The notes beneath the pieces are model-generated. The model did no database searches and was not told the origin of the DNA. It saw only the letters and a list, made by a program, of their open reading frames with translations. A stretch of DNA of 64,000 nt from Apostichopus japonicus (taxonomy: Eukaryota > Echinodermata > Holothuroidea > Aspidochirotida > Stichopodidae), in assembly GCF_037975245.1 (NCBI RefSeq), contig NC_092561.1, positions 5,010,001 through 5,074,000 on the forward strand, written 5' to 3'. Of the stretch, positions 42,228 to 63,600 are shown one piece after another. The first letter of the stretch is position 1. Each line of letters begins with the position of its first letter. Both the position numbers and the translations under genes were made by a program.

Positions 42228-43014
42228 GGGGTTAGGGTTAGCCTAGGGTTAGCTATGGGTTAGGGGTTAGGGTTAGGTTAGGTTAGGGTTAGCTTAGTGT
42301 TAGCCTAGGGTTAGGGTTAGCCGCAGTAGGGGTTAGGTTAGGGTGAGCTTAGGGTTATTGTTAGCCTAGGGTTAGGGTTAGCCTAGGGTTAGGGGTAAGG
42401 GTTAGCCTAGGGTTAGGGTTAACCTAGGGTTAGCCTAGGGTTAGCCTAGGGTAAGGGTTAGCCTAGGGTTAGGGTAAGGATTAACCTAGGGTTAGGGTTA
42501 GGTTAGGGTTAGCCTAGGGTTAGGGTTAGCCTAGCTAGCCTAGGGTTAGGGTTAGGGTTAGCCTAGGGTTAGGGTTAGCCTAGGGTTAGGGTTAAGGGTT
42601 ACGGTTAGGGTGAGGGTTAGGGGTTAGTACGTTAGGGTTAGGGTTAGGGTTAGCCTAGGGTTAGGGTTATCCTAGGGTAAGGGTTAGCCTAGGGTTAGGC
42701 CGGGTTAGGTTAGGGTTAAGGGTTAGGGTTAGCCTAGGGTTAGGGGTTAGGTTAGGGTTAGGGTTAGCTGTTAGGGTTAGCCTAGGGTTAGGGTTAGCCT
42801 AGGGTTAGGGTTAGGGGTTAGGGTTAGCTTAGGGTTAGGGTTAGGGTTAGCCTAGGGTTAGGGTTAGCCTAGGGTTAGGGTTAGCCTAGGAATATGGTTA
42901 GCCTAGGGTAGTAGGGTTAGGTAAGGGTTAGCCTAGGGTAAGGGTTGGCTTAGCTAGGGTTGTCTAGAATTAGGGTAAGGTTAGGGTTAGTTTAGTGTTA
43001 GGTTAGGGTTAGGA
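42228..43014 (+). repeat. Degenerate interstitial telomere-like array (TTAGGG / TTAGCCTAGGG)
   Basis: About 790 bp of irregularly alternating TTAGGG and TTAGCCTAGGG units, with occasional GGGTAAGG, TTAGTG and TTACGG variants. The G-rich strand is the plus strand, so it is oriented as if a chromosome end lay to the right. Ordinary sequence continues on both sides, so it is interstitial. TTAGGG is the usual metazoan telomere unit; the mixed unit is unusual. Confidence 0.9.
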
Positions 43015-49886: not shown

Positions 49887-50256
49887 GCCCATGTAGCTAT
49901 TTATTGTAGTAGTATCACAATGTAGTTCCCCCCTCCCCAGAAAATTTCCAAAAAAAAGCTTGGCTGGTAGCCATAACAAAATTCAATGAAAAATACAGTA
50001 TGCTGAAATAAAGTGGAGAAAAACAGTATATTTCAGTTGTGAATGAATAATTAAACTTGCTCAAATCTCCTGAAACCTGAACAGCTACCCAAAAGTACAA
50101 ACAAAAGTGTTAAAAAAGAGTTAACAAGGATAACTACTTAAGGCTATGGATAACAATGCCTGATGTTTTAGGAAACATGAGCTGTATGCATCATCCATGA
50201 CAACAGGAGCTAACGGAAGAAGATTTACACTTCAGTCAGGAAGATTGCAATTCAGT

Positions 50257-50700
50257 AGTGGGTAGTGCTATAGCTTTTATACTATAGTACTGTAGAGCCT
50301 AACCAAATAAATGCACTCCCTAACATAACTAGTGGGTAGTGCTATAGCTTTTATACTATAGTACTGTAGAGCCTAACCAAATAAATGCACTCCCTAACAT
50401 AACTAGTGGGTAGTGCTGTAGCAACTATACTATAGTACTGTAGAGCCTAACCAAATAAATGCACTCCCTAACATAACTAGTGGGTAGTGCTATAGCTACT
50501 ATACTATAGTACTGTAGAGCCTAACCAAATAAATGCACTCCCTAACATAACTAGTGGGTAGTGCTATAGCTTTTATACTATAGTACTGTAGAGCCTAACC
50601 AAATAAATGCACTCCCTAACATAACTAGTGGGTAGTGCTGTAGCAACTATACTATAGTACTGTAGAGCCTAACCAAATAAATGCACTCCCTAACATAACT
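50257..50700. repeat. Tandem array, exactly 6 x 74 bp
   Basis: Unit starts at 50257, 50331, 50405, 50479, 50553 and 50627; every unit is 74 bp with no indels. Differences cluster in one short window after GTAGTGCT: units 1, 2 and 5 read ATAGCTTTTAT, units 3 and 6 read GTAGCAACTAT, and unit 4 reads ATAGCTACTAT. All units contain TATACTATAGTACTGTAGAG and AATAAATGCACTCCC. It lies between the MITE and the helicase 3' end. Not CRISPR: there are no unique spacers. Confidence 0.95.
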
Positions 50701-54600: not shown

Positions 54601-57600
54601 GAACTCAAAGTTGCCGATGATGAAGACGGAGTACGCTGCTCTGGTGAGGGCGACATTCAGCTCATTGTGATTATCAAGGAAGCTGTAGTAGGATAACAAA
54701 AGGTTTTTTTTTGGAAGACTTCTTGTAGTAAGAATATTTTTCAGATATAGGACATGAAATATCATAGATATGAAGTGAAATTTCCGTCATGTAAAGACGT
54801 ACAACCATATCAGTCAGTTGAAAACAACTGCTGCAGACGACAACAAACATGATCGAAAGAATAAAATTCTGTGTTGAAATTTTACCCCAGATATTGAGAA
54901 TACGGTTGTGTCTTAACACAGGAGATGATCACAATATCCTTCATCTTCCCTTGAAGTCCTTTGATATCGCCTATGTAGGGTCTAGGGAACAAACAGACAT
55001 TAACAAAAACAAAATGAAGCCACCAAAAAAACACAAAATCGTCTCCAAAAAAAACAAACAAAGCAAAATGGATTTTACACACCCCATCATTTACAAACCG
55101 GTATCTTTCAAAGATCACTTAGTTTTGGTTTAGTGCTCCTCAAAATGATGATTTCAATAAGATATTCCTTTTTGTTCAATGGTTGCATTCCTTTTCAGTG
55201 ATTTTATTCCTTAGCCAATGGCGGAGCGTCCATACAGTCAGAGGGGGCGCATGCCCCCCCCTGACGGACTCGAATGGACTGCTGGCGCCCTTTTCAGCCT
55301 TTCACCACTTTTTACTTATTCACGATTATTGACTTTTTTATTGCGCTCTCAAATACCTATTGATATTTGTCACATTTTGTTGGTGTAATTTTCTGACAAA
55401 ATGGCGATGACACCTATTTATCCTTCGTTTATCTGCAAATTAGCAAGGCCCGGAAAGGGTAATGTCCGGCGATCTAGGGAGTATCTTTACTCAAAAAATT
55501 CATGAAAAGGTTGGCTTCTCTAGGGAGGGGAGTCACGTGCCTCCTGCCGCCCCCCCTCCCCCCCTCCCTTCTTATCCAGCTAGGACGTCTCTCTTGCTCT
55601 CACTTACCCAGCACGATTATTAATCTTCTGTTTCAGCCGTCTGACTTGTTCCCGGTACGGTGCTATGATCGCTAGACTAATGTTGTGACCAGAGTGCCGA
55701 AAGATAGTGTCAACCAGATTCTGCACCAGATCAATCTCTGCTTCGTTGATCAAATCACTTTAATTGTTTCAGAAATATCACAATAAATTACATACAATAT
55801 CAGAAAATTATACTGTCTGTCAGAAAGTGAAAAATCCTTGGAACCATATTCACAGGTTTATAAAGCAGGCAGATCACTTAAACCAAACTGACTTCTATGT
55901 TGTTTGGAATTGTTAAGGTGCCATCAAAACGAATCAATCAATTTCTGCAATTTTGTTCCAATATATCCATTTGCTGCCAAATGTGGAAATGATGACCTTT
56001 CTGATGCGAGCAAATTTAAAATTTTGAATTTTTTTGGAATTCTGGTGATGCCTACATGTAAAATGGTGGCACTTAGAAAGGCTTTTGTCACCCAATATTT
56101 TCTGAGAAATATGCATTTTTTTGTGTGTAACATCAATAAATTGAATAGTAGGTGATAATTCATTCTTTCCCGTGGCATGAAAATGTTCGCTACTCGCCCC
56201 AATGAAAAGAAATATAGGCTAATTTAAGGTTCAAATGATGCTGTAAAGGAGGTTTTATACTCTACTATGCTAAATGCTAAAGAAATGATGGTTGCTAAGT
56301 CAAAATTTGATGCAATTTTTTTTTATGTATACTTGACAATTACAATGCGGGTTTTCGGACGCTTGCGCGGGTCAGCGGGTTTGGGTGTTAGAATGCGGGT
56401 CCAACCCGCGAAATGCGGGTCAGTTGGGAGCTCTGATGTTGAATTTTGAAACGACTGAGTTCATTTCCATACAATATAACTTGATACAATGAGACATATA
56501 CATAAATACAATAACTAATGATATTGAATTGTACCATCCAACCAATGATACCCAACCATACCATATAAATACAATAGATGCATACATATACACATACATA
56601 CACACACCTATAGATACATACATACAAGGATGTGTAGGAGGCCTGAGAAATTGAGAGCATTCTAATTATGTATGAATATTACAAGCCTTGACAAGAATGG
56701 TTTAAAGTTAAGAATCCAATGCAAAATGCAGTTTTAATGTACATAGGCTTACCCACATAAAATAACATTATGTTCAATAGAAAGTGGGGTCTCTTAAGCA
56801 AAAACCCAGTTGGGACAATTTTTTTCGATACTGTTCATTCAAATCCTGCTTCCGAGCACTCGGAAAGACAGTATGAGTAGTTTGTTGCTATCAGATAAAA
56901 GTTGGGAACTGTTCATACTGTCAGAACGAGTGCTTTGAAGCATGAAATAGGATGACAGTATAGTGTGGTATTAGCATTACAAACAGAGTAAAGGTTAGGA
57001 ACTGTTCATACTCTCAGTACGAGTGCTTTGAAGCATGATATAGGAAGACAGTATAGTGCTATTAGCATTACAAACAGAGTAAAGGTTAGGAACTGTTCAT
57101 ACTGTCAGAACGAGTGCTTTGAAGCATGAAATAGGATGACAGTATAGTGTGGTATTAGCATTACAAACAGAGTAAAGGTTAGGAACTGTTCATACTGTCA
57201 GAACGAGTGCTTTGAAGCATGAAATAGGATGACAGTAGAGTGTGGTATTAGCATTACAGAGTAAAGGTTAGGAACTGTTCATACTCTCAGTACGAGTGCT
57301 TTGAAGCATGAAATAGGATGACAGTATAGTGTGCTATTAGCATTACAAACAGAGTAAAGGTTAGGAACTGTTCATACTGTCAGAACGAGTGCTTTGAAGC
57401 ATGATATAGGATGACAGCATATAGTGCTATTAGCATTACAAACAGAGTAAAGGTTAGGAACTGTTCATACTGTCAGTACGAGTGCTTTGAAGCATGAAAT
57501 AGGATGACAGTATAGTGTGGTATTAGCATTACAAACAGAGTAAAGGTTAGGAACTGTTCATACTCTCAGTACGAGTGCTTTGAAGCATGATATAGGAAGA

Positions 57601-60600
57601 CAGTATACAGTGCTATTAGCATTACAAACAGAGTAAAGGTTAGGAACTGTTCATACTGTCAGTACGAGTGCTTTGAAGCATGATATAGGAAGACAGTATA
57701 CAGTGCTATTAGCATTAGGAAGTATTGTCCCAACTGGCTGCATGAAACATTCATAAGGATATTCATACCCATCAGATGTGGCTTTCTCTTCACTGTCTTT
57801 GAGGTTGAATATGAGGTACGGCGTCAATTTGAAGTTCTCCCTTCCATAAATGGGGCTAAGAGGGTGAGAAAAGATGATTCAATAACTGGACGAGAGTGCA
57901 AGCTACAATACACGAAGTAACTTCTAATGGATGCTAAATTGAAAATAAAGCCATTCTCAATTATTTAATTTCCTATTAGGGCCAGGGGGAAAAAAATGGT
58001 TGCAGGAAAGTCTCCTCTTAGGGCCAGGGGGAAAATATTGCTTGCAGCAAAGGGTTTGAGGGAATCAGAATGTTACCAAAACTAGACAGCAATATCCAGG
58101 GTTGTATTTTATGTGTGTTTAGGGGGGGGGGGGGGTTTGATGCAAGATTGAGGGCAGACTATTGTTTTTTTCCCATATTTTTTAGTCGGCCTGATTTGGC
58201 ATACAAGCAAAGAGCTTTTTTTCACAGCTATATCAATTATTGTTAATGATATAGCAACAGCACTCAACAACAGAATATAAAATTAATTAATGGTATAGTG
58301 TTACTATCATTCTAACTAACATTTAACAATTATATAACAATATGTACCAAACATAATGATCTACTATTGACCTATTCAGTATGATAAGCCATAACTAATG
58401 ATATCCAATCATACCATAAAACTAATGATATCCAACCATACCAACAAACTAATGATACCCAACCATACCAACAAACTAATAATATCCAACCATACCAACA
58501 AACTAATGATACCCAACCATACCATCAAACTAGTTATAACCATACCAAACTAATGATATCCAACCATACCAACAAACTAATGATACCCAACCATACCAAA
58601 AAACTAATGATATCCAACCATACCAACAAACTAATGATACCCAACCATACCAACAAACTAATGATACCCAACCATACCAACAAACTAACGATACCCAACC
58701 GTACCATCAAACTAGTAATAACCATACCAAACTAATGATACCCAACCATACCAACAAACTAATGATACCCAACCATACCATCAAACTAGTAATAACCATA
58801 CCAAACTAATGATATCCAACCATAACAACAAACTAATGATACCCAACCATACCAACAAACTAATGATACCCAACCATACCATCAAACTAGTAAGAACCAT
58901 ACCAAACTAATGATATCCAACCATAACAACAAACTAATGATATCCAACCATAACAACAAACTAATGATACCCAACCATACCGTCAAACTAGTACTATCCA
59001 ACCATACAAAACTAATGATATCCAACATACCATCAAACTAATGATACCCAGCCATACCATCAAACAAGTTATAACCAACCATACAAAACTAATGATACCC
59101 AACATACCATCAAACTAATGATACCCAGCATACCATAGAACAAAATGATTCCCAACCATACCAAAAAGCTAATGATACCCAGCCATATCATATGCCTAAT
59201 GATACCCAACCATACCATTAAACTAATGACACTCAACCATGTCATCTCACTAGTCATCCCTAATAAGTGATACTCAACCACATCAAATGATATCAGTCCA
59301 TACTTGTTCCTGATTCTGTTGTGGTAAAAAATTTTGTTCGGAAAGCTAAATATTTCTGGATGGCACCAACATTGATCTGTGAGCCTTTGAACCGGATGAG
59401 AACTACTCCCTTGGAAGTTCATCCAGAGACGAGTGAAGAGAGACTGGGAGAGTTTTAACCGACTCGGAATCTGAGCGGAAAAGAAAAACAATTATTAGAG
59501 TTAAGCAATTCAAACAGGAGTCCAGATGTTTCTTGATTTGTTGATCAGCAAAAGGGGAACATAATAGAAAGAATCATGGTGGCATTGAACAACATGAAAA
59601 CAAATGCAACTCTTGCAAACATTGAACATTAAAGGAACTCCACATCCTCCCTTCTTTCCTCCTCTTCCACCCCTCCCCCTCTCCAAAATATCATTGTTTT
59701 GGTTGTCACACCTGTGGAAATGCCTTTGGTTTCAGCTCCTTTGGGTCTCCAGCAAGTACTAACTTAGTTATAGTACTGTACAGGGGTAATATTGTGTCCA
59801 CTTCCAGACACTGACATGCCTGCAGAAATAAAAGAAATGAAAAAATATGATACAAGGATATTAAAAACAAAAACATCAACTTAACATAACATCTGGGACT
59901 ACCATCAATTCTGCTCTTAATGATTTTCAATGATGACACAACATAAATATTGACATTGATATGTTGTAGACCATTCAATGGCACTGCTATCAGGTTAGGT
60001 TTGTATCTTTACGACACATTTAATTATTGAGAAATGCCTCGTTAAACATCTGAGGTTCTTTGATAAAAGTGGCTGGTTTACATAATGTGCTACCGGTACT
60101 GTGGCCACTGAGTGGATAAAGGCGGTGGCATTTGAAGGAATGAGGCTTAGCAATCTTGAGGTACCGTGTTCGATACCCTGCCGGGTCATCGTTAGGTGGA
60201 TTTTTCATCCAAGAGCAATCTATGGTTTTCTCATATGAAATGACTTTCTAAATTTGGAAAAGATTCCAAATTTGAGTTAAAATGTTGAAATGGAAGACAC
60301 CCGACAAGTAATTCGTAATCCATAAGCCCTTGCGGGTTTCTCCCACATTTGTGGTCGCTTAAGATGTTGTAAAAATAACTGCTACATGTTATTATTATTA
60401 TTATTATAATACACAGACCATTAGAACAGTTTGTTAGAAGCAGCTGGGAAAAAAAAAACTCAATTGGAAAACAGAAGACTTTTATGGCCTCAAATGAAAT
60501 GTTGATGATGTAGTTTGAGTTTGATTGATTTCCACATAATATAAATACAATAGTGAATAATTAAATTACAAGGAGGTGGAGGAGGACTGAAGAAGCAGAG

Positions 60601-63600
60601 CTTTTACAAGCAGTGCCCAATTACAAGAACAATAAACGAAAAAGGACACGTGGTATTAAATGTCGTCCAAGGATGCTCTGTTGTTTATATGAAGTTACAA
60701 AGAACATGTTTTTGGTTTAGGTATTTGCTTTCACAAAACGATGGATTGACGTTAACATTTAGGTTTGCACTAAGGTAGGGTTACCATATTTGTTTTTGAA
60801 AAACCAGGACACCGATCCGCGTCCTACACTGATCCGCGTCCTGGGGGAGGGGTCTAAGGGGAGGGGGTGGAAAATTTTTCGTTTTTCAAAGGTGCCTAGA
60901 TGCAAAATGGTGCAATCTAAATCACTCTAATGGGGACTCAGGGAGGTCCCCAACTTGAGTGAATTATGGTTTGGCTCCAAGTCTAGTAAAAATTAACAAA
61001 AAGTGTACTGTGCCACAGGGCAGATTGGAGTCCAAAAAATCTCCTCTGAATTTATGCACCTAAGCATACTTCTCTGAGGATCTGATTTTCCTCAACAAGG
61101 AAGGCCGCCGATGTTCAATCACAGATTCACAACACTTCATACTTCGGATTGGCGCGCGTGATACTCTGCCTAAAACTGACATTATGTTAGATAGGGCAAT
61201 ACTCATAATTACGGTGTGTTCACGCTATTGACTGCGTTCTACTATACTTTGTGAGAGCCCGTCTACGTGCAGGAAAGTGGTGTGTGTCTCTACTGCTGTC
61301 CGTATATGGTATATAATATATTATAGGTAGCAGACGACGCGAGTACGCGTTTATTGCGTATAAATTTAGTTGGAAATCATTTGCTCGTGACTTGTGAGGT
61401 TAAATTAGGGAAAACCTGTCAATTCCTGTGTGAAATTCTTGAAATCCGGATATTATTGCCAAATTGGAAAATCCACCTGGACGCCCGCGTAAGTCACGAA
61501 AAACCGGACATGTCCGGGTAAAACCGGACGTCTGGTAAGCCTACACTAAGGAGACGACATCATTCTCACTTGAGCCTACTTTCAAGGTGGATATCGTGAG
61601 AACCGAAATAGCTACAGAAACATTACTGGAGGGGTTAGCCTGGTGTAAAACAAAAAAATCACGGAACTTTGCAAAAGTTGCGGTATAGGCTCCAGTTTGC
61701 TTATGCTGCAGTGTGTTAGGATAATAGTTTTTGTCCCCGAGGTAGAAAAGGAATCACAGATATTCTGCGAATTCACGGAAAAAGCTTATGACTGTTACTG
61801 TCACTCATTTTTTTTTTTTCGTTTTTCTTTAACTTCTTTTAAACACTGTAGGTTAACACTGAGACAGGTATCGAATGTAAAAGAAAATGTCACCTCGTCA
61901 ATAATTGCGCACGAAAAGGTGACCTTTAGTGGATCGTTGGCTGGCCGTCTGAGCAACTTCTGCAAGACCTGTAAATTATAAAAGGAGACAGCTAGCTATA
62001 AGAATAAAGCGATCCCCTGACGTCACTAGCGATTAAAATGAATCATGTAAGAAATATTAAAGAATTATTGCTCAACATTCATATTCGTGTCTAAAACTTA
62101 CAAGTTTGCCAACATATATTTGCTATTGTCCAAATAGTCTTGTGTCAACATATCATCGTTGTCCTACATTTTTTTCCGGTCTAATATGTTGCTGTTATAC
62201 TGGCCAACGATACTGTTATTGTCTAAAATAGAGCAATCAAATCAATCAAAACGTTGATCCAAGATTAGTTCAATATAACAGCAACAGAGACGGCGACAGA
62301 CAAGAAAAGAACAAAATTGCTCGATTTTCTTTTCGTTTTTTGGATGAATATAGATGGAATGCAGAGTGCCTAGAAATGTTGGTAACCCACCGGAGAACTG
62401 ACATCGCTGACTCTGCAGCAGATGACGTCTGCTTTCACAATCAATTCCTCTCTTGTCTTGTCAGGATTAAACTCTGCTTTGAAGTCATTTTCCAGCTTCT
62501 GTTCCACCTCCCTATTGGATCGAAGTGCCGTCTTCTCCTTCCGTAGTTTTTCAATCTTGGAATTGAGAGGAAGGTTTATAACCAATCAACTAGTAATGCA
62601 ACTTACAGTCCTGTGTGTAAAACTTGTCATTCAATAGCAACGTTACTCACATTGCCTATTTATCATTCAAATAGCATCATAACTCACATTGCCTATTTAT
62701 CATTCAAATATCAGTGTAGCTCACATTGTCTATTTATCATACAAATAGCAACATAACTCACATTGTCTATTTATCATTCAAATACCAATGTAACTCTCAT
62801 TGTCTATTTATCATTCAAATAGCAACATAACTCACATTGCCTATTATTCTTTCAAATTAGCAGTGTAGCTCACATTGTCTATTTATCATTCAAAAAGTAG
62901 TGAAGCTTACATTGCCTATTTATCATTCAAATACCAATGTAACTCACATTGCCTATTTATCATTCAAATAGCAGTGAAGCTCACATTGCCTATTTATCAT
63001 TCAATAGCAACGTTACTCTCATTGTCTATCTATCATTCAAATAGCAGTGTAGCACACAATGCCTATTTATCATTCAAATAGCAGTGTAGCTCACATTGCC
63101 TATTTATCATTCAAATACCAATGTAACTCACAGTGCCATATTTCTTTGGAATGCTGTTGTATTGGATACTGGCGTCTAAATCTTGTTCCCTCATTTCCAG
63201 CATCCCAATACGTTTTCGTATCTGCTTCAGTGTGTTATCATGTTTGGCTGTTCGGGGAGGGGGGCAAAAATGTATGCAGATTTTTAGATGAATTGTGGAC
63301 TATTAAACTCTTTATTCAATCAAAATTTGAACTGAAAAAAATATTAAAATGAAATGGAATATTTGTCAACAAAATTTCATTCCTTGCCTAATGATCGAAG
63401 ATTGTAAACACCAGGAATGATAGAGCCCTGGTCGTCGTCATTCACATTTTGAGCAAGAATGTAATCGTACAGACATAGGACATACATAAAGGTTGACACA
63501 ATTATTATCCATAATGGAAGACATGCGTAAATTAATACGCTGGGCTTTTGTAACAATGCAGACTCCATAAAATCCAATACCTTCTGTGTCCTTCACAATT

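What the first reader, a model, noticed from the sequence alone, without database searches (positions are those of the whole stretch)
62621..63131. A minisatellite that multiplies the helicase's own 5' splice site
The exon ends GGCACT|GTGAGTT, and the intron continues as about 13 tandem 37-bp units, each reading GGCA(A/C)AT-like text then GTGAGTT or a close variant; 11 of 14 unit ends keep a usable GTGAG/GTAAG. The repeat begins within the exon's last bases. Alternative donors every 37 nt would add 37-nt steps, shifting frame and probably exposing stops, so the array may act as a splice-site decoy ladder or regulatory poison series.
Basis: partly seen in the sequence, partly recalled or inferred. 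Interest (0 to 1): 0.7.

Follow-up and report, generated by a model that had tools for sequence, protein, structure and literature searches.

The report
Repeat array copying a splice site
In an echinoderm genome, probably a sea cucumber's, the spot where one exon of a senataxin-like helicase gene ends has been copied about 13 times in a row into the following intron; similar arrays are known in lancelet genes and in a human clotting-factor gene, so this is most likely a tolerated repeat rather than a switch.

Summary
On the minus strand an exon (63247-63132) of a Sen1/senataxin-type helicase gene ends ACT|GTGAGT. A 37-bp tandem array begins in its last ~12 bases and fills most of the 576-nt intron (63131-62556). 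Counting the real donor, 11 of 14 unit donors are GTRAG. The exon edge belongs to the repeat register (edit distance 2; 22 of 20,000 random anchored sites reach that).

The regulatory reading is not supported. The donor letters are no better kept than the rest of the unit, and the unit hairpin shows no compensatory change. Every alternative donor would retain the same in-frame TGA after six intron codons, so 37-nt frame steps are irrelevant.

The best explanation is a neutral minisatellite seeded by tandem duplication across the exon-intron junction, tolerated because the most upstream donor is used. This architecture is published: lancelet 'mirages' (Adh, troponin C, globins, PGBD5) and human F7 intron 7, whose repeat is also 37 bp.

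The genome is an echinoderm (mitochondrial gene order and code), probably a sea cucumber. I found a second boundary-spanning array in an acid-phosphatase-like gene there, and a second intron of the helicase gene whose array runs back to its donor. My searches found no echinoderm report. Splicing itself was not observed.

The parts
63132..63247 (-). Exon of the Sen1/senataxin-type helicase gene upstream of the array (116 nt, ends in phase 0, ...IPKKYGT|)
   Evidence: Acceptor AG at 63249-63248, open frame, and frame-preserving junction with the next exon; the 128-aa peptide built from this exon and its neighbours matches Pfam AAA_11 weakly, below its cut-off
62556..63131 (-). Intron, 576 nt, GTGAGT...CCAAG; about 508 nt of it is the repeat array
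62624..63143 (-). 37-bp tandem array: boundary unit (last ~12 exon bases plus real donor) and 13 internal units of 36-38 nt, 10 of them with GTRAG
   Evidence: TRF, wrap-around alignment, unit check
63126..63134 (-). Real 5' splice site ACT|GTGAGT (G+1 at 63131)
   Evidence: lowest matrix score of the 11 GTRAG donors in the array (recalled human matrix)
62391..62555 (-). Next exon (IEKLRKEKTALRSNREV...ADVICCRVSDVSS); the 3' end before GTGGGT is my estimate
   Evidence: Phase-0 join stays open; GTGGGT at 62390
58393..59303 (-). Second array of the same gene: 27-bp units with GTATGG (24 copies), running back in degenerate form to the donor AACAA|GTATGG of another exon
   Evidence: TRF 58393-59240; the stretch from the donor to the TRF start aligns with the tandem unit from G+1 on, score reached by 1 of 2000 shuffles; donor -10..+20 alone, 31 of 2000; 24 GTATGG; exon joins the next one in frame
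56892..57717 (-). Third array of the same gene (93 bp x 9), starting 51 bp after the donor at 57768; similarity to the donor region not significant
   Evidence: TRF; donor -10..+20 score reached by 280 of 2000 shuffles, longer region by 1050 of 2000

Best explanation
A short stretch spanning the exon-intron junction (about 12 exon bases plus about 25 intron bases) was duplicated in tandem and grew by unequal exchange or slippage into a minisatellite inside the intron. The outermost unit keeps its exon part because it encodes protein. Splicing most likely uses only the most upstream donor (63132|63131). The downstream copies are latent pseudo-donors that would be used mainly if the first were damaged, and any such use retains a stop codon six codons into the intron. 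Shown: the array, its register across the exon edge, the donor copies, the shared stop, and the lack of extra donor conservation. Inferred: the order of events, exclusive use of the first donor, decay of leak products, neutrality.
For: Exon flank in register. Boundary region against unit: 0 of 2000 shuffles reach the score. The unit at 62959 repeats the intron part of the boundary unit letter for letter, 25 of 25 (rows). Donor columns no better kept than others; GTGAG 9 of 13, middling among 37 windows. All array donors give the same TGA. Minisatellites are common in this genome: 32 arrays (unit 12 bp or longer, at least 3 copies, at least 100 bp) in 264 kb. Units are not generally donor-like: 5 of 28 with GTRAGT against 3.2 expected, P 0.20. 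A second array spans an exon's 3' end in an acid-phosphatase-like gene. Published analogues are reported to splice normally or from the first donor.
Against: By a recalled human matrix all 10 internal GTRAG donors score above the real one (3.5-4.8 against 2.6 bits), so if strength alone decided, the array would win. U1 pairing energies: four internal donors tie with the real one, one is better, five are weaker. In two introns of one gene arrays begin at the donor, and in a third one begins 51 bp after it, which hints that donors may attract arrays. No RNA or relatives were available to show which junction is used.
Confidence: 0.76

Rival explanations
1. Regulatory poison ladder: the array donors compete for U1 and divert a tuned, copy-number-dependent share of transcripts into products with a premature stop, lowering helicase output.
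For: Ten internal GTRAG donors, all scoring above the real one by a recalled matrix, and all giving the same stop.
Against: Donor letters not preferentially kept; 3 of 13 internal units have lost GTRAG; lancelet Adh3, globin and troponin C arrays are reported not to disturb splicing and F7 uses only the first donor in normal condition.
Confidence: 0.1
2. The minisatellite came first and the exon end later moved into it: the donor was recruited from an array unit, so the last exon bases derive from the repeat.
For: The same sequence similarity across the boundary fits either direction.
Against: The frame on both sides fits the helicase, but no relative could be compared; direction is undecided by sequence alone.
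Confidence: 0.1
3. The unit is propagated for its structure (a near-palindrome that puts the donor in a hairpin), hiding the copies or driving instability.
For: The unit consensus contains a 12-bp imperfect inverted repeat around GTGAGT (structure counted). In a predicted fold of the transcript the real donor (9 nt) is more open than 7 of the 10 GTRAG copies, though less open than the median 9-mer.
Against: No pair with change on both sides; 86.9% of cells paired against 87.5% in shuffles; 8 of 14 units break pair 12-24. Fold z-scores of single units vary from about -3.2 to +1.2; over 6 nt the real donor is more open than only 5 of 10 copies.
Confidence: 0.04

Closest known systems
Lancelet 'mirages' (Adh3, globins BflGb6 and BflGb9, troponin C, PGBD5; PMC3087553 abstract and passages, PMC3902484 passages)
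   Same: Minisatellite-like tandem duplication across an exon-intron boundary with splice signals in many units; Adh3 units 10-72 bp; the outer unit is part of the gene.
   Different: Here in an echinoderm genome and a Sen1/senataxin-type helicase; about 14 units; length variation and splicing not tested.
Human coagulation factor VII intron 7 repeat (PMC6627357, passages)
   Same: The 5' splice site lies in the first of several 37-bp repeats; further donors downstream.
   Different: Unrelated gene; no sequence comparison was made, so the equal 37-bp length is taken as coincidence. F7 copy number is variable and its splicing was tested; here neither was possible.
Introns embedded in tandem repeats with dual-specific sites, such as human polyubiquitin UBC (PMC10809524, abstract and passages)
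   Same: Splice signals repeated by a tandem array.
   Different: UBC uses AGGT as donor and acceptor and repeats coding units; the array here has no AGGT and is intronic.

Membership tests
Boundary-spanning minisatellite ('mirage') | Tandem repeat whose register crosses an exon-intron boundary | tested here: met
Boundary-spanning minisatellite ('mirage') | Many units keep the splice signal | tested here: met
   11 of 14 GTRAG, real donor included
Boundary-spanning minisatellite ('mirage') | Regular splicing undisturbed | not testable with these tools
   No RNA data
Boundary-spanning minisatellite ('mirage') | Length instability between haplotypes | not testable with these tools
   One assembly only
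Boundary-spanning minisatellite ('mirage') | Occurs in a cephalochordate (where the name was coined; a matter of host, not of structure) | tested here: not met
   Mitochondrial contig reads with the echinoderm code and has COX1-ND4L-COX2; gene-order rule recalled
F7 intron 7 type | Real donor in the first of several repeats with donors downstream | tested here: met
F7 intron 7 type | Only the most upstream donor used | not testable with these tools
   No RNA data
Dual-specific splice-site repeat (UBC type) | AGGT usable as donor and acceptor in each unit | tested here: not met
   No AGGT in 63143-62624, minus strand
Sen1/senataxin-type helicase gene | SF1 helicase motifs and nearest solved relatives Sen1-like | tested here: met
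   Pfam AAA_11 and AAA_12, one exon peptide each above the cut-off; PDB 8ftm (a Sen1 by recall) and Sen1 5mzn among the top three. Sen1 against other UPF1-like members was not resolved by a tree

The most novel reading that the evidence does not exclude
The array is a copy-number-tunable U1 landing platform: each unit carries a U1 site close to a GATAAA poly(A)-signal variant (11 copies in the array; its role as a variant signal is recalled), so U1 on the array suppresses premature 3' ends or throttles donor choice, coupling output of a termination-type helicase to U1 supply.
Probability: 0.04. Interest if true: 0.65.

Novelty: new member of a known kind. Interest (0 to 1): 0.3.

Why it matters
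It extends boundary-spanning minisatellites, which the papers I saw describe for lancelets plus a human F7 case, to an echinoderm genome and to at least two genes there. Such arrays are natural tests of how the spliceosome picks one donor among many near-identical copies, and a proposed raw material for new introns (PMC3087553). The case itself is probably neutral.

Tried and rejected
Donor conservation as a sign of selection: not found. Hairpin covariation: not found. Real donor more accessible than the copies: mixed, more open than 7 of 10 GTRAG copies over 9 nt and 5 of 10 over 6 nt. General donor enrichment in this genome's minisatellite units: 5 of 28 against 3.2 expected, P 0.20; without the finding's array 4 against 3.2, P 0.40, and combined matrix test P 0.97. 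For this test five arrays of one satellite family in L019 were collapsed to one (32 to 28), and L001-L003 were left out. Array C as a boundary array: not significant. L010 8780-9125: donor-like units in an intron of a gene matching Pfam Suf, but TRF starts it about 250 nt after that exon's donor, so not a boundary array. L004 2685-2948 and L007 8204-8613: no exon seen at their edge by eye. Lancelet origin: rejected by mitochondrial code and gene order. Paralogue copies of the gene and copies of the unit elsewhere in the genome: not answered, because the whole-genome search was unreachable after (13 calls). alone, with 701 bases around the array, found only the window itself, but that search skips simple repeats.

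One search was a 240-s wait. Borensztajn 2006 and a DOI that I recalled for the Adh paper are not held. Searches were rejected for characters in the search terms and reworded. PMC3778950 and PMC2206037 (passages) and PMC4039745 (abstract and outline) gave nothing on this structure. One search translated a wrong frame. The script joined exons of the second array with 4 intron bases too many; one search repeats it correctly. One search was a report whose fields did not fit the schema.

Full report
What is there. On the minus strand an exon (63247-63132, 116 nt, phase 0 end) is followed by a 576-nt intron (63131-62556) and an exon starting at 62555; the frame runs on across the join. TRF calls a 37-bp array of 14.0 copies at 62627-63143. 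A wrap-around alignment resolves a boundary unit from 63143 and 13 internal units of 36-38 nt. The real donor is ACT|GTGAGT; 10 of 13 internal units have GTRAG, one has GTGTG and two GAGAG. In the 508-nt array GTRAG occurs 11 times against 0.76 expected.

The boundary. The exon flank before the donor is at edit distance 2 from the 11-nt unit flank; 22 of 20,000 random anchored places in the window are that close, and the best of 16 GTGAGT sites outside the array is 5. The boundary region as a whole scores above all of 2000 shuffles against the unit. The unit at 62959 carries the same 25 intron letters as the boundary unit, including a G found at that column in only 3 of 14 units (rows), so the array and the boundary have probably exchanged sequence.

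The gene. Of 6 exon peptides scanned against Pfam, two pass the curated cut-off (AAA_11 and AAA_12), three match AAA_11 below it and one matches nothing. The joined helicase peptide's best solved relatives are a 5'-3' RNA helicase-like protein (8ftm), which I take from recall to be a fungal Sen1, and yeast Sen1 (5mzn), with SMUBP-2 and UPF1 behind. Sen1/senataxin type is therefore likely; no tree was built.

Function tests. (a) Over 13 internal units the donor columns are kept at 0.872 against 0.908 for the rest; GTGAG is intact in 9 of 13 units, and 20 of 37 windows, itself included, do as well or better; with GTAAG allowed it is 10 of 13, and 16 windows reach 10. (b) Any array donor would retain the same TGA, six codons into the intron, so frame steps do not matter. 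(c) All 10 internal GTRAG donors score above the real one by a recalled human matrix; U1 energies are -5.5 for the real donor and -4.3 to -7.1 for the copies, four tied, one better, five weaker. The matrix result goes against a strength-only choice of the real donor; the neutral reading needs a position rule. Such a rule is reported for human F7 intron 7, where the donor lies in the first of several 37-bp repeats and only the most upstream is used in normal condition (PMC6627357, passages). (d) The unit contains an imperfect inverted repeat, but no pair has changes on both sides and pairing is not above shuffles. In a predicted fold the real donor is more open than 7 of 10 copies over 9 nt and 5 of 10 over 6 nt.

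Surroundings. Two other arrays lie in introns of the same gene. The 27-bp array at 58393-59240 runs back, in degenerate form, to the donor at 59303 (1 of 2000 shuffles for the whole stretch, 31 of 2000 for the donor's -10..+20) and carries 24 copies of GTATGG; the exon before it joins the next one in frame. The 93-bp array at 56892-57717 starts 51 bp after a donor, with no significant similarity to it. In 200 kb of C1 (20 pieces of 10 kb) plus the window there are 32 arrays, 28 after collapsing one family, 5 with GTRAGT in the consensus against 3.2 expected, P 0.20. I looked by eye at the four of these five that are not the finding. One of the four, L007 9041-9210 (45 bp x 3.8), spans the 3' end of an exon matching prostatic acid phosphatase (E 1.5e-5) with donor TACT|GTAAGT; the exon part scores above all of 1000 shuffles, and of nine joins tried one runs open into a membrane-segment exon. 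Its Pfam scan gave no match. Of the 28 arrays I thus looked at seven (three in the helicase gene, four); 21 were not checked for exons, so 2 of 28 spanning is a lower bound.

Organism. The assembly has 671.6 Mb in 35 contigs. Of the 20 contigs sampled, C2, C10 and C18-C23 are 18-36 Mb, C24-C34 are 10-130 kb and C35 is 16,099 bp. The first 6000 bases of C35 hold COX1, ND4L, COX2, ATP6, COX3 and ND4-like frames open under the echinoderm code (gene names by my reading). From recall, ND4L after COX1 is the echinoderm order, and genome and mitochondrial sizes fit Apostichopus japonicus; the species is a guess.

Known or new. [quoted passage not shown] They were reported in Adh3 (10-72 bp units) and globins, with splicing apparently undisturbed (PMC3087553, abstract and passages), and in troponin C and PGBD5 (PMC3902484, passages). 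The structure here is the same kind. Ten paper searches were run. The two that named sea cucumber or echinoderm listed 20 of 72 papers and 19 of 19; from titles and abstract starts none describes this in an echinoderm.

Verdict. The finding is a real example of a known kind, in a new phylum as far as my searches show, most likely neutral. The regulatory idea stays untested for lack of RNA.

Noticed in passing
L007:9041-9210 (minus strand; G000 C1:809041-809210): 45-bp x 3.8 array spanning the 3' end of an acid-phosphatase-like exon and its donor TACT|GTAAGTA: a second boundary array in this genome.
   Followed up: partly
window 58393-59303: 27-bp array in another intron of the helicase gene that runs back to its donor, with 24 GTATGG copies.
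   Followed up: partly
window 56892-57717: 93-bp x 9 array starting 51 bp after a third donor of the same gene; no significant similarity to the donor.
   Followed up: partly
window 42229-43013: Degenerate interstitial telomere-like GGGTTA/TTAGGG array of about 780 bp.
   Followed up: no
window 50256-50700: 74-bp x 6 array, 96% matches, possibly recent.
   Followed up: no
L010:8780-9125: Array with many GTGAGTAC-containing units inside an intron of a Suf/CstF77-like gene, not at the boundary.
   Followed up: partly
window 61612-61785 and 66572-66748 (by window numbering, in L002): Two related minus-strand peptides (...LTHC.I.KLEPIPQ.LQSSVI...) in introns of the gene, perhaps pieces of an interspersed repeat.
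   Followed up: no
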